Shown here in pieces: positions 10,706-20,393 of a stretch of DNA of 64,000 nt. Every line of letters begins with the position of its first letter. Position 1 is the first letter of the stretch. Made by a program: the position numbers and the translations under genes. Under the pieces are notes generated by a model. The model did no database searches and was not told where the DNA came from. It worked only from the letters and a program-made list of their open reading frames with translations. Location of the stretch: assembly GCF_010537335.1 (NCBI RefSeq), contig NZ_AP019711.1, forward strand, positions 1,984,001 through 2,048,000, in the 5' to 3' direction. This DNA comes from Amedibacterium intestinale. GTDB lineage: Bacteria; Bacillota_I; Bacilli_A; Erysipelotrichales; Erysipelotrichaceae.

Positions 10706-12163
10706 ATGAAGTTTCATTGTGAAGAAAAACCTATCCTATGGGGTGGAGCGACTGCATCTAGCCAATATGAAGGAGGATGGGATAAAGGTGGAAAGGGTAT
10801 GGATACGCAAGATTGTCGTCCATATCTAATTAGAACATCAAACGCAACTACCGAAACACGACTTTTAACAAAAAAATCGGTAAGTGAATCAAAAAAAGAT
10901 AAATTAAAATTTTATCCTTTTAGATCTGGTTCTGATGGATATAATCATCTTAAAGAAGATATACAGTTACTTAAAGAATTAGGTATTGATATCTATCGTT
11001 TATCAATTAGTTGGGCTAGACTATATCCAAACGGAGATGAAGAAGAACCAAATATTGATGGAATTCGATATTATGATGAAGTATTTTCAGAAATAAAAAA
11101 AAGTGGAATGAAAATATTTTTAACTATGACACATTATGCGCTTCCTTTATACCTAGTGGAGCATTATGGTGGTTGGACTAATCGTAAGTTAATTGAATTC
11201 TATATTAGATTTGCAAAAACTATATTTGAAAAATGGGGAGATGTTATAGATTACTACCTTCCTTTTAATGAAATTAATGCAGGATATTTTTCTCCATATA
11301 ATGGTGTTGGATTATTACGTGAAGAAAATAAACCTTATAACCAGTCGTTAGTTTTTCAGTCACTTCATCATCAATTTGTAGCGAGTGCAAAAGTCATAGA
11401 ACTAGGACATAAATTGGTAAAAGGAAAATTTGGATGTATGGTAGCTTGCTTTTGTTATTATCCATATTCTTGCAATCCTTTGGATAATATGAAATTAGTT
11501 ACAGATGAAAATACAAATACATGGTTTTGTGCAGATGTATTAACAAGAGGATATTATCCAAATTATATGACTCGTTTTTTTGAAGAAAGAAATATTGAAT
11601 TTGAAGTAACAGAAGAAGATGAACGTGTTTTAAGAGAAAATACAGCAGATTTTGTATCATTTTCTTATTATCAATCAAGTGTAACATCTTATGAAGAAAA
11701 AGAGAAAACTGCTGGTAATTTGGTAGTTACAACAAAAAATCCATATTTAAAGGCAACTGAGTGGGGTTGGCAGATTGATCCAGTTGGTTTACGTGTAACA
11801 TTAAATAAAGTGTATGACCGATATCAAAAACCTATTTTTATTTCTGAAAATGGATTAGGAAGTCGTGATGTTTTAGAAGAAGATAAAACGATTCATGACT
11901 CGTATAGAATTCAATATTTAAAAGAACATTTTGAACAAATTAAAGAAGCACAATTAGATGGTGTAGATATTTTAGGTTATATTATGTGGGGTGTTATTGA
12001 TATTGTTTCAGCAGGTAGTTGTGAAATGGAAAAAAGATATGGTGTAGTTTATGTAGATGCTGATAATGAAGGAAAAGGAACATACCAGCGTTATAAAAAA
12101 GATAGTTTTGAATGGTATAAGAATTTTATAAAATCAGAAAAGGAGAGATTTCATGTCAAATAA
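10706..12163 (+). CDS. GH1 6-phospho-beta-glycosidase
   Basis: 485-residue family 1 glycosidase. The N-terminus LWGGATASSQYEGG is typical. The acid/base glutamate is in FNEIN (E189), the nucleophile glutamate in SENG (E381), and the phospho-sugar loop SAGSCEMEKRYG near the C-terminus marks the 6-phospho subgroup. These enzymes split PTS-imported, 6-phosphorylated beta-disaccharides. It overlaps murQ by 11 bases, so it is tied to wall-sugar salvage rather than to an ordinary cellobiose operon. Its true substrate could be a phosphorylated chitobiose- or muropeptide-type sugar; this is inference. Confidence 0.9.
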   Translation: MKFHCEEKPILWGGATASSQYEGGWDKGGKGMDTQDCRPYLIRTSNATTETRLLTKKSVSESKKDKLKFYPFRSGSDGYNHLKEDIQLLKELGIDIYRLSISWARLYPNGDEEEPNIDGIRYYDEVFSEIKKSGMKIFLTMTHYALPLYLVEHYGGWTNRKLIEFYIRFAKTIFEKWGDVIDYYLPFNEINAGYFSPYNGVGLLREENKPYNQSLVFQSLHHQFVASAKVIELGHKLVKGKFGCMVACFCYYPYSCNPLDNMKLVTDENTNTWFCADVLTRGYYPNYMTRFFEERNIEFEVTEEDERVLRENTADFVSFSYYQSSVTSYEEKEKTAGNLVVTTKNPYLKATEWGWQIDPVGLRVTLNKVYDRYQKPIFISENGLGSRDVLEEDKTIHDSYRIQYLKEHFEQIKEAQLDGVDILGYIMWGVIDIVSAGSCEMEKRYGVVYVDADNEGKGTYQRYKKDSFEWYKNFIKSEKERFHVK

Positions 12164-13073
12164 TTTTTTAAAAAATTTAAATACAGAACAACAAAATCCT
12201 AATACTTTAGATATTGATATATGTTCAACGAATGAAATTCTACAAAAAATTAATCAAGAAGATAAAAAAGTAGCTCTTGTTGTTGAAGAACAAATACCAT
12301 CGATAACTCAATTAATTGATGCAGCTTATGAATCTTTGAAGAAAGGTGGAAGAATAATTTATGTTGGTGCTGGAACATCTGGACGATTAGGAATATTAGA
12401 TGCATCTGAATGTCCACCAACTTATGGTGTTTCAGATGAACTTGTACAGGGAATCATTGCAGGAGGTTACCCAGCAATATTTAAAGCACAGGAAGGAGCT
12501 GAAGATTCTAAAGAAAAAGGAAAAGAAGATTTAATACAAAAAAAAGTTAATAAAAATGATATGGTCATCGGACTAGCTGCAAGTGGTCGTACACCATATG
12601 TTATAGGAGCTTTAGACTATGCTAATGAAATTGGTGCTACTACAGGAAGTGTATGTTGTGTGCTTAATGGAGAAATTTCTAAAGTATCAAAATATCCAGT
12701 TGAGGTAGTTACAGGTGCAGAAGTAGTAACAGGTTCAACACGTATGAAAGCCGGTACAGCACAGAAAATGGTATTAAATATGATTTCAACAGCTGTAATG
12801 ATAAAATTAGGAAAAGTATATAAAAATTACATGATAGATGTTCAGCCAACAAATGAAAAATTAGAGTATCGTGCATGTAGCATAATAAGTAATTTAGCTA
12901 ATGTAGATGAATCTGAAGCAAATAAATTATTTATTGAAAGTGGAAAAAGTGTAAAATTAGCAATCATAATGTCTATTACAGGAAAAACGAAAGAAGAAGC
13001 CAGTTTGGCATTGACAAAAACAGAAGGACATATGAAAAAGGCAATTGATTTATTAAATAAGGAGGAAAAATAA
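12153..13073 (+). CDS. murQ: N-acetylmuramic acid 6-phosphate etherase
   Basis: 306-residue SIS-domain lyase that cleaves the lactyl ether of MurNAc-6P to give GlcNAc-6P and D-lactate. Diagnostic stretches are YVGAGTSGRLGILDASECP, GLAASGRTPYV and the EVVTGSTRMKAGTAQKMVLN block. The C-terminal small helical part is intact. It starts inside the end of the GH1 gene with an AGGAGAG site, and PTS IIA follows after one base. This gene identifies the cluster as wall-sugar recovery. Confidence 0.97.
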   Translation: MSNNFLKNLNTEQQNPNTLDIDICSTNEILQKINQEDKKVALVVEEQIPSITQLIDAAYESLKKGGRIIYVGAGTSGRLGILDASECPPTYGVSDELVQGIIAGGYPAIFKAQEGAEDSKEKGKEDLIQKKVNKNDMVIGLAASGRTPYVIGALDYANEIGATTGSVCCVLNGEISKVSKYPVEVVTGAEVVTGSTRMKAGTAQKMVLNMISTAVMIKLGKVYKNYMIDVQPTNEKLEYRACSIISNLANVDESEANKLFIESGKSVKLAIIMSITGKTKEEASLALTKTEGHMKKAIDLLNKEEK

Positions 13074-13074
13074 A

Positions 13075-19239: not shown

Positions 19240-19253
19240 GATGAGGAGAAAAA

Positions 19254-20393
19254 ATGTTAGCAATAGGATTAATGTCTGGAACATCTTTAGATGGAATAGA
19301 CGCAGTTTTATGTGAAGTTACAGGGTTTGGTGAAAATACTAAAATTCGTCAGATAAATTTTTGTACTTGTGAAATTCCTCTTAATATTAAGGAAAAAATA
19401 CGTCGTTGCTGTGCAAATGAAAAAATTACTACAGATTTAATTTGCTCATTAAATTTTGAATTAGGTGAACAATTTGCATTAGCAGCATTAAGTGTTTGTC
19501 ACAAAGCAGGTATAAATAGTAAAGATGTTGCATTCATAGCAAGTCATGGACAAACAATTTATCATATACCACATGCTTATGGTGACTGTGTTCCTAGTAC
19601 TTTACAGATAGGAGAAAGCGCAATAATTGCACAACGATGTCAATGTCCTGTGATTTCTAATTTTCGTGTTAAGGATATGGCAGTAGGTGGTGAAGGTGCA
19701 CCATTAGTTCCATACAGTGAGTTTATTTTATATAGAAAAGAAGATGAAGCAGTTGCATTACAAAATATAGGTGGAATAGGGAATGTTACTGTTTTACCGG
19801 CTGGATGCACTATTGATAATGTATATGCATTTGATACTGGGCCAGGAAATATGATTATTGATGAAGCAATGAGAAAATTATATAGAAAGTCATATGATGA
19901 AAATGGTTTGATAGCATCAAAGGGAAGAATAATTGAAAATCTAAAAGATGAATTGATGAAACATTCGTATTTAAATTTAAAACCACCTAAAACAACTGGT
20001 CGTGAAATGTTTGGAGAGCCATTTACAGATGAATTATTAAAATGTTATCAAGGAGAAAATAAAGAGGATATTATAGCGACATTAACATGGTTTACAGCCT
20101 ATTCTATAGCTGAAAGTTATAGAAAATTTGTCTTACCAAATCATCAATTATCTGAAGTAATTTTAGGTGGAGGAGGGGCTCATAATGCCACTCTTAAGAA
20201 GATGATTGAAAATGAGCTGCCAAATATAAAAATATTGACTCAGGAAGATAAAGGTTATTCATCAGATGCTAAAGAAGCAATTGCATTTGTGATATTAGGT
20301 AATGAAACTATGCATCAACATTTTTCAAATGTGCCAAATGCAACTGGTGCAAAACAAAAAGTTATTTTAGGAAATATTACATATCCTAATTAA
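19254..20393 (+). CDS. anmK: Anhydro-N-acetylmuramic acid kinase
   Basis: 379 residues. The N-terminal IGLMSGTSLDGIDAVLCE, the middle ASHGQTIYH and DTGPGNMIID, and the late ILGGGGAHN are the AnmK marks. It opens the 1,6-anhydro ring and phosphorylates the sugar to MurNAc-6P, the substrate of MurQ. Anhydro sugars come from lytic transglycosylases, so the cluster accepts both PTS-imported and anhydro forms. It is the last gene before a bidirectional terminator. Confidence 0.97.
   Translation: MLAIGLMSGTSLDGIDAVLCEVTGFGENTKIRQINFCTCEIPLNIKEKIRRCCANEKITTDLICSLNFELGEQFALAALSVCHKAGINSKDVAFIASHGQTIYHIPHAYGDCVPSTLQIGESAIIAQRCQCPVISNFRVKDMAVGGEGAPLVPYSEFILYRKEDEAVALQNIGGIGNVTVLPAGCTIDNVYAFDTGPGNMIIDEAMRKLYRKSYDENGLIASKGRIIENLKDELMKHSYLNLKPPKTTGREMFGEPFTDELLKCYQGENKEDIIATLTWFTAYSIAESYRKFVLPNHQLSEVILGGGGAHNATLKKMIENELPNIKILTQEDKGYSSDAKEAIAFVILGNETMHQHFSNVPNATGAKQKVILGNITYPN

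What the first reader, a model, noticed from the sequence alone, without database searches (positions are those of the whole stretch)
10706..20393. Muropeptide salvage cluster with a cellobiose-type PTS instead of MurP
murQ, mupG (GH170), a BadF-type amino-sugar kinase, a MurR-like regulator and anmK sit together with separate lactose/cellobiose-type PTS IIA, IIB and IIC genes and a GH1 phospho-glycosidase. The described MurNAc-GlcNAc systems use the glucose-family MurP permease. This set predicts a different importer for wall disaccharides and a complete path to GlcNAc-6P, including the anhydro branch.
Basis: partly seen in the sequence, partly recalled or inferred. Interest (0 to 1): 0.76.

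Follow-up and report, generated by a model that had tools for sequence, protein, structure and literature searches.

The report
Cell-wall sugar salvage operon, chitobiose-type importer
A gut-type Gram-positive bacterium carries a conserved set of genes that probably imports cell-wall disaccharides through a chitobiose-like sugar transporter and breaks them down; the genes around it suggest it takes the lysozyme-type fragment (GlcNAc first) rather than the S. aureus-type fragment (MurNAc first).

Summary
The genome has no MurP-type IIBC. The set is conserved: 28 loci join murQ, lactose-type IIC and GH170 in Erysipelotrichia, Clostridia, Leptotrichia, Lactobacillales and wall-less Mollicutes. 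The pathway detail is probably not the S. aureus one. The window's GH170 lies in a clade apart from all 11 MurP-linked GH170s, with two active-site-face differences. AnmK is in 19/28 lactose-type loci and 0/11 MurP loci, and the genome has no NagZ or GH20. Since anhMurNAc exists only at the reducing end, the likelier substrate is GlcNAc-(anh)MurNAc, with GH170 acting as a 6-phospho-GlcNAcase and the kinase as MurK. GH170 with a cellobiose-type PTS is already known for chitobiose (L. paracasei chb). New variant of a known kind; the substrate orientation is inferred, not shown.

The parts
10706..12163 (+). GH1 6-phospho-beta-glucosidase-like enzyme (6-phospho-glycosidase subgroup); optional member of the operon
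   Evidence: PF00232 359 bits; nearest models are 6-phospho-beta-glucosidases, all below their cut-offs; best PDB 6wgd, 6-phospho-beta-glucosidase. Present in 7 of 28 lactose-type murQ loci
12153..13073 (+). MurQ, MurNAc-6-phosphate etherase
   Evidence: TIGR00274 386.5 bits, over cut-off 302; the only copy in the genome
13075..13401 (+). PTS IIA, lactose/cellobiose family
   Evidence: PF02255 120 bits
13406..14143 (+). Cytoplasmic alpha/beta hydrolase (Hydrolase_4, S33), GTG start; possible esterase on O-acetylated sugar (inference only)
   Evidence: PF12146 E=4e-16; different alpha/beta hydrolases recur in related murQ operons
14115..14477 (+). 120-aa membrane protein, conserved operon member, no known family
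   Evidence: No Pfam or PADLOC hit; found in 14 of 28 lactose-type murQ loci and 0 of 11 MurP loci; motif TDYxIPxFxYKSA, hydrophobic segments
14587..14901 (+). PTS IIB, lactose/cellobiose family
   Evidence: PF02302 E=2e-11
14935..16287 (+). PTS IIC, lactose/cellobiose/chitobiose family
   Evidence: TIGR00410 382 bits, over cut-off; only PDB match is 3QNQ (E=3e-72); residues aligned with 3QNQ His250 and Glu334 are conserved
16356..17450 (+). GH170 of the lactose-PTS-linked clade, predicted 6-phospho-N-acetylglucosaminidase (annotated start 16296; similarity starts at 16356)
   Evidence: MupG_N/MupG_C; tree; 1X7F E=4e-113; model pLDDT 90, Foldseek 1X7F E=2e-45
17450..18358 (+). BadF-type amino-sugar kinase, predicted MurNAc/GlcNAc kinase (MurK-like)
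   Evidence: PF01869; best PDB 8zo3 'N-acetylmuramic acid/N-acetylglucosamine kinase', E=1e-36, shared RSGGWG...GDEGS loop
18364..19239 (+). RpiR/MurR-type regulator (HTH_6 + SIS), GTG start
   Evidence: PF01418, PF01380
19254..20393 (+). AnmK, anhydro-MurNAc kinase
   Evidence: NF007142 566 bits, over cut-off 435
20448..20489 (+). Intrinsic-terminator-like hairpin closing the operon
   Evidence: ACAGATGAT...ATCATCTGTTTTT

Best explanation
This is a complete salvage operon for peptidoglycan disaccharides whose non-reducing sugar is GlcNAc: GlcNAc-MurNAc (from muramidases) and GlcNAc-anhydroMurNAc (from lytic transglycosylases), after amidases remove the peptide. The chitobiose-like PTS (IIA/IIB/IIC) imports the disaccharide and phosphorylates C6 of GlcNAc. 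The GH170 enzyme splits GlcNAc-6P-(anh)MurNAc into GlcNAc-6P plus MurNAc or anhMurNAc. The BadF kinase turns MurNAc into MurNAc-6P, AnmK turns anhMurNAc into MurNAc-6P, and MurQ turns MurNAc-6P into GlcNAc-6P plus lactate. NagA elsewhere in the genome carries GlcNAc-6P on. RpiR is the likely sensor. Shown: the gene set, its conservation, absence of MurP, NagZ and GH20 in the genome, and the clade split. Inferred: the substrate, the GH170 bond specificity and the kinase specificity. The broader claim (lactose-type PTS-based wall-sugar salvage without MurP) I hold at about 0.9; the orientation at about 0.5.
For: (1) AnmK is in 19/28 lactose-type murQ loci and 0/11 MurP-murQ-GH170 loci (Fisher p=1.5e-4, not corrected for shared ancestry). 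anhMurNAc exists only at a reducing end (established chemistry), so MurNAc-GlcNAc cannot yield it. (2) The genome has no GH20 and its one GH3 lacks the NagZ motif (KHWVGYGASEGG, against KHFPGHGDT in a NagZ-GH170 fusion). Six further AnmK+ lactose-type genomes have no GH3 at all, so the known enzyme that frees anhMurNAc is missing. (3) In 15 of 20 AnmK+ lactose-type loci GH170 is the only hydrolase family found, with no GH1 or GH4. (4) The window GH170 is outside the clade with all 11 MurP-linked enzymes (SH-aLRT 98) and has Leu58/Asn247, where MurP- and NagZ-linked GH170s have mostly His58 (15/17) and always Asp247 (17/17); both sit at the ends of barrel strands. (5) The only other function known for a GH170 with a cellobiose-type PTS is on GlcNAc-GlcNAc (PMC12791066, genetic). 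(6) The kinase's nearest solved relative is a MurNAc/GlcNAc kinase, and kinases with small residues at this loop can take MurNAc (PMC10465942).
Against: The only biochemically characterised GH170, S. aureus MupG, cleaves MurNAc-6P-GlcNAc (PMC6262408). The genome has one GH73 domain, a family that often includes endo-glucosaminidases yielding MurNAc-GlcNAc. AnmK could use anhMurNAc imported on its own: E. coli MurP is annotated as also carrying it, and on one Priestia plasmid anmK lies beside murP-murQ. One relative (L098) has a MurP-type GH170 in an operon with two lactose-type IICs, so that IIC family may also carry MurNAc-GlcNAc. Clade and residue differences show divergence, not what the divergence does. 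S. aureus MupG and L. paracasei ChbE themselves could not be placed in the tree.
Confidence: 0.5

Rival explanations
1. S. aureus-like pathway with a swapped importer: the lactose-type PTS imports MurNAc-GlcNAc, GH170 acts as MupG on MurNAc-6P-GlcNAc, MurQ handles MurNAc-6P and the BadF kinase handles GlcNAc. AnmK is a side branch fed by free anhMurNAc.
For: GH170 includes biochemically proven MupG (PMC6262408). murQ follows directly from MurNAc-6P without a MurNAc kinase. All likely catalytic residues are shared by both GH170 types. A GH73 domain exists in the genome.
Against: Window GH170 is not in the MurP-linked clade and has Leu58/Asn247. AnmK enrichment with no NagZ or GH20 is left unexplained. 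Two genomes carry both GH170 types close together (C. tertium L010 and Clostridium sp. L011), which suggests separate substrates.
Confidence: 0.27
2. Broad system: the PTS imports several beta-1,4 amino-sugar disaccharides (chitobiose, GlcNAc-MurNAc, GlcN-containing and cellobiose-like ones), with GH170, GH1 or GH4 each cleaving a different 6-phospho-disaccharide.
For: GH1 or ChbF-like GH4 enzymes recur beside the PTS in many relatives; IIC is nearest in the PDB to 3QNQ; related lactose-type GH170 loci without murQ exist (42 rows).
Against: GH1 and GH4 are absent from most murQ-positive lactose-type loci (GH1 7/28, GH4 3/28).
Confidence: 0.18
3. Chitobiose or cellobiose uptake operon, with murQ, anmK and the kinase as unrelated neighbours.
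For: The PTS family alone points this way; GH170 + cellobiose-type PTS is a chitobiose system in L. paracasei (PMC12791066).
Against: murQ, anmK, kinase and PTS are interleaved in changing orders in distant lineages and still stay together, including in wall-less Mollicutes.
Confidence: 0.05

Closest known systems
S. aureus mupG-murQ-murP-murR (MurNAc-GlcNAc recycling; PMC6262408)
   Same: PTS import of a wall disaccharide, GH170, MurQ and an RpiR-type regulator in one operon
   Different: Glucose-family MurP; MurP-type loci surveyed here lack AnmK and BadF kinase; their GH170s belong to another clade
L. paracasei chb operon (N,N'-diacetylchitobiose; PMC12791066)
   Same: Cellobiose-type IIA/IIB/IIC with a GH170 (ChbE)
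   Different: As described, a regulator, ChbD and ChbE with the PTS; the paper says no sugar kinase is encoded in the operon and does not mention murQ; assigned to chitobiose, not muropeptide sugars
Borrelia cp26 chb genes with BBB07
   Same: A GH170 about 45% identical to the window's, next to PTS IIB; chbC is required for chitin/chitobiose use (PMC2845121)
   Different: Only the best-place listing was read; sequence not fetched; no murQ context examined
MurNAc/GlcNAc kinase MurK (PDB 8ZO3; C. acetobutylicum MurK by function)
   Same: BadF-fold MurNAc/GlcNAc kinase, nearest solved relative of the window kinase
   Different: Its operon and transport context were not examined here; the source organism of 8ZO3 is not given in the tool output
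Priestia megaterium plasmid locus (L172)
   Same: Lactose-type PTS + GH170 + BadF + RpiR, with murQ and anmK nearby
   Different: Also carries a MurP-type PTS next to murQ

Membership tests
S. aureus-type MurNAc-GlcNAc recycling (MurP/MupG/MurQ) | Glucose-family MurP IIBC | tested here: not met
   Best hit in the genome 163 bits to NF007152, against 288-331 bits for murQ-linked MurPs in the same search; E. coli MurP hits at most 30% identical
S. aureus-type MurNAc-GlcNAc recycling (MurP/MupG/MurQ) | GH170 orthologous to MupG | tested here: not met
   Outside the clade holding all 11 MurP-linked GH170s (98 support); Leu58/Asn247 instead of His/Asp. S. aureus MupG itself was not available for the tree, so this rests on MurP-linked stand-ins
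S. aureus-type MurNAc-GlcNAc recycling (MurP/MupG/MurQ) | MurQ etherase in the operon | tested here: met
   TIGR00274 over cut-off
S. aureus-type MurNAc-GlcNAc recycling (MurP/MupG/MurQ) | Uptake of MurNAc-GlcNAc | not testable with these tools
   Needs transport assays
GH170 family | MupG_N + MupG_C domains, TIM barrel, shared active-site residues | tested here: met
Lactose/cellobiose-family PTS | Separate PF02255 IIA, PF02302 IIB and lacE-type IIC | tested here: met
   IIC residues aligned with 3QNQ His250 and Glu334 conserved
Chitobiose (chb) PTS systems | Transport of (GlcNAc)2 | not testable with these tools
   Needs transport assays
MurK-type MurNAc/GlcNAc kinases | Room for the lactyl group (no Glu/His in the loop) | tested here: inconclusive
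   RSGGWG loop shared with the solved MurNAc/GlcNAc kinase 8ZO3, but GlcNAc-only kinases of this fold may look the same; activity untested
AnmK | Match over the curated equivalog cut-off | tested here: met
   566 bits against 435

The most novel reading that the evidence does not exclude
GH170 holds two enzyme types. The lactose-PTS-linked type (Leu58/Asn247) is a 6-phospho-N-acetylglucosaminidase that, with a chitobiose-like PTS, MurK, AnmK and MurQ, forms a PTS route for GlcNAc-MurNAc and GlcNAc-anhMurNAc. It is spread across Clostridia, Erysipelotrichia and Fusobacteriota and used by wall-less Mollicutes to eat other bacteria's walls.
Probability: 0.42. Interest if true: 0.72.

Novelty: new variant of a known kind. 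Interest (0 to 1): 0.58.

Why it matters
In the papers I could search, no PTS is described for lysozyme-type or transglycosylase-type wall disaccharides; known uptake of GlcNAc-anhMurNAc is by AmpG-type permeases, and of MurNAc-GlcNAc by MurP. If right, many gut Firmicutes and some wall-less parasites have a dedicated route to use the wall fragments that lysozyme releases. It would also split the GH170 family into two specificities with a two-residue signature, so automatic 'MupG' labels on the larger group would be wrong, and it gives a direct assay that settles it.

Tried and rejected
Chance clustering: rejected by 28 loci in distant lineages. A MurP elsewhere in the genome: none at MurP-like scores. 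NagZ or GH20 elsewhere: the one GH3 lacks the NagZ motif, no GH20. GH1 as the general enzyme for the anhydro branch: absent from most AnmK+ loci. The small membrane protein: no match in Pfam or PADLOC. Looking for operon-linked secreted wall hydrolases that would reveal the fragment: in the loci checked only a GHL10 protein in two close Clostridium loci and a coiled-coil secreted protein downstream in one, not informative. Promoter scan: 63 found against 68 expected, no signal. Papers: no description of this operon found. The C. difficile cel paper is not held.
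Full report
WHAT IS THERE. The window lies in a closed 2.49-Mb genome; close relatives of its cluster are Erysipelotrichaceae such as Traorella. Downstream of a dnaA/rnpA/yidC/jag neighbourhood and a fragment of a small transposase, window 10706-20393 (+) holds eleven genes with overlaps or short gaps: GH1, murQ, IIA, an alpha/beta hydrolase, a 120-aa membrane protein, IIB, IIC, GH170, BadF kinase, RpiR and anmK. A terminator-like hairpin follows anmK.

IS MURP REPLACED? The genome has six glucose-family IIBC proteins, at most 30% identical to E. coli MurP. 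Against the MurP model NF007152 the best scores 163 bits, while the murQ-linked MurPs of relatives score 288-331 bits in the same search (none of the 14 genomes searched reaches the model's curated cut-off of 516, which only one of the 14 control genomes passed). So MurP is absent and the operon's own PTS is the candidate importer. The IIC passes the lacE cut-off (382 against 236 bits); its only PDB match is 3QNQ, and the residues aligned with 3QNQ His250 and Glu334 are kept. That 3QNQ is the B. cereus chitobiose IIC and that these two residues matter for catalysis is from my own knowledge.

CONSERVATION. A scan of 84,980 species genomes with the GH170 gave 44 loci. Those at 64% identity or more mostly carry murQ, IIA, IIB, IIC, BadF, RpiR and often AnmK in varied order: Clostridium, Clostridioides, Leptotrichia, Traorella, Holdemania, Aerococcaceae and others. 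With regions from Erysipelotrichia and Mollicutes genomes and four plasmids I had 129 GH170s. Contexts: 31 rows (28 loci, the window included) with lactose-type IIC + murQ; 42 with lactose-type IIC and no murQ; 11 with MurP + murQ; 6 with murQ but no PTS; 39 other.

TWO KINDS OF GH170. In a maximum-likelihood tree (quick method) all 11 MurP-linked and all 6 PTS-less murQ-linked GH170s fall outside a clade of 106 rows that holds the window and nearly all lactose-PTS-linked ones (SH-aLRT 98). One exception sits among the MurP type: L098_0, whose operon has two lactose-type IICs and both kinds of GH170. Some MurP-type rows have long branches, so their internal order is unsure. Many likely active-site residues are the same in both kinds (D88, R116, D118, N141, N167, Y169, E220, R223, R292, D294, R301, Y338, E341). 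Two positions differ cleanly: 247 is Asp in 17/17 MurP- or murQ/NagZ-linked enzymes and Asn in 101/104 of the lactose clade; 58 is His in 15/17 against Leu/Ile/Phe/Val in the lactose clade. In the AlphaFold model (pLDDT 90) both sit just after barrel strands, on the face where the shared residues lie. Of the two solved GH170s, B. cereus 1X7F groups with the lactose type and E. faecalis 2P0O with the MurP type.

WHICH DISACCHARIDE? AnmK is in 19/28 lactose-type murQ loci and 0/11 MurP loci; the BadF kinase in 21/28 and 0/11 (Fisher p = 1.5e-4 and 1.9e-5; the loci are not independent). anhMurNAc occurs only at the reducing end of glycan fragments, so cleaving MurNAc-GlcNAc cannot make it. Normally NagZ (GH3) frees anhMurNAc from GlcNAc-anhMurNAc. 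The genome's one GH3 is a long protein without the NagZ motif, GH20 is absent, and six further AnmK+ lactose-type genomes have no GH3. MltG, a lytic transglycosylase that makes anhMurNAc ends, is present. In 15 of 20 AnmK+ lactose-type loci, GH170 is the only hydrolase of the families searched. The simplest reading is that the PTS imports GlcNAc-(anh)MurNAc, phosphorylates GlcNAc, and the GH170 splits it. The kinase then has to act on MurNAc; its nearest solved relative is a MurNAc/GlcNAc kinase with the same RSGGWG loop, and in related kinases small residues there leave room for the lactyl group (PMC10465942). NagA is present. This is an inference chain, not a demonstration.

TELLING SIDE CASES. 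Two wall-less Mollicutes genomes (TGA read as Trp, no murC, no mltG) carry murQ, lactose-type IIA/IIB/IIC, GH170 and anmK together, so there the set must serve uptake of foreign wall fragments. In another group without PTS genes, three genomes have a GH170-containing open frame of about 880 aa; in the one read in full it is a GH3 (NagZ-type)-GH170 fusion, and such operons hold NamZ, AnmK, murQ and mostly BadF: there AnmK comes with a NagZ, which fits the argument that AnmK needs an enzyme opening GlcNAc-anhMurNAc.

WHAT SPEAKS AGAINST. The only purified GH170 is a 6-phospho-muramidase (PMC6262408). E. coli MurP is annotated as also carrying anhMurNAc, so a PTS could feed AnmK directly, and a Priestia plasmid has anmK beside murP-murQ. 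A GH73 domain in the genome could make MurNAc-GlcNAc. I could not place S. aureus MupG or L. paracasei ChbE in the tree.

KNOWN AND NEW. GH170 with a cellobiose-type PTS is published for chitobiose in L. paracasei (PMC12791066), and Borrelia plasmids carry a GH170 next to PTS IIB, where chbC is needed for chitin use (PMC2845121). MurP/MupG/MurQ is published for S. aureus. I found no paper on this joined operon, on AnmK with a lactose-type PTS, or on a PTS for GlcNAc-(anh)MurNAc (open-licence papers only). It is a new variant of a known kind.

Noticed in passing
L168 about 8.1-10.8 kb (-), also G198:C17; long GH170 frame in G219:C38: A natural GH3 (NagZ-type)-GH170 fusion of 889 aa in L168, in an operon with AnmK, murQ, BadF and NamZ but no PTS gene. 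G198 has GH3 and GH170 hits in one 875-aa frame; G219's 881-aa frame was seen only by its length.
   Followed up: partly
L116, L117 (G105, G119): Wall-less Mollicutes (no murC, no mltG, TGA = Trp) carrying murQ, lactose-type PTS, GH170 and anmK together, implying use of foreign wall sugars.
   Followed up: partly
window 14115-14477; homologues in L002-L004, L007-L010, L013, L014, L016, L017, L020, L021, L042, L101, L103: A small membrane protein family (TDYxIPxFxYKSA motif) with no Pfam family, tied to this PTS type.
   Followed up: partly
L173 (C. difficile plasmid), L092, L147: Lactose-type GH170 next to an amidohydrolase; on the C. difficile plasmid also a DgaE-like lyase and a KDGP aldolase, suggesting another amino-sugar substrate for this GH170 group.
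   Followed up: no
L185 (G000:C1:1120200-1124000): The genome's only GH73 protein ends in a dockerin-like repeat.
   Followed up: no
window 10125-10547: IS200-like transposase fragment just upstream of the operon, overlapped by an Rfam STnc490 match (10132-10244, 58.2 bits against a 56 cut-off) that is probably part of the insertion sequence.
   Followed up: no
L098 (G027:C12): One operon with both GH170 kinds and two lactose-type IICs, useful as a natural comparison.
   Followed up: no
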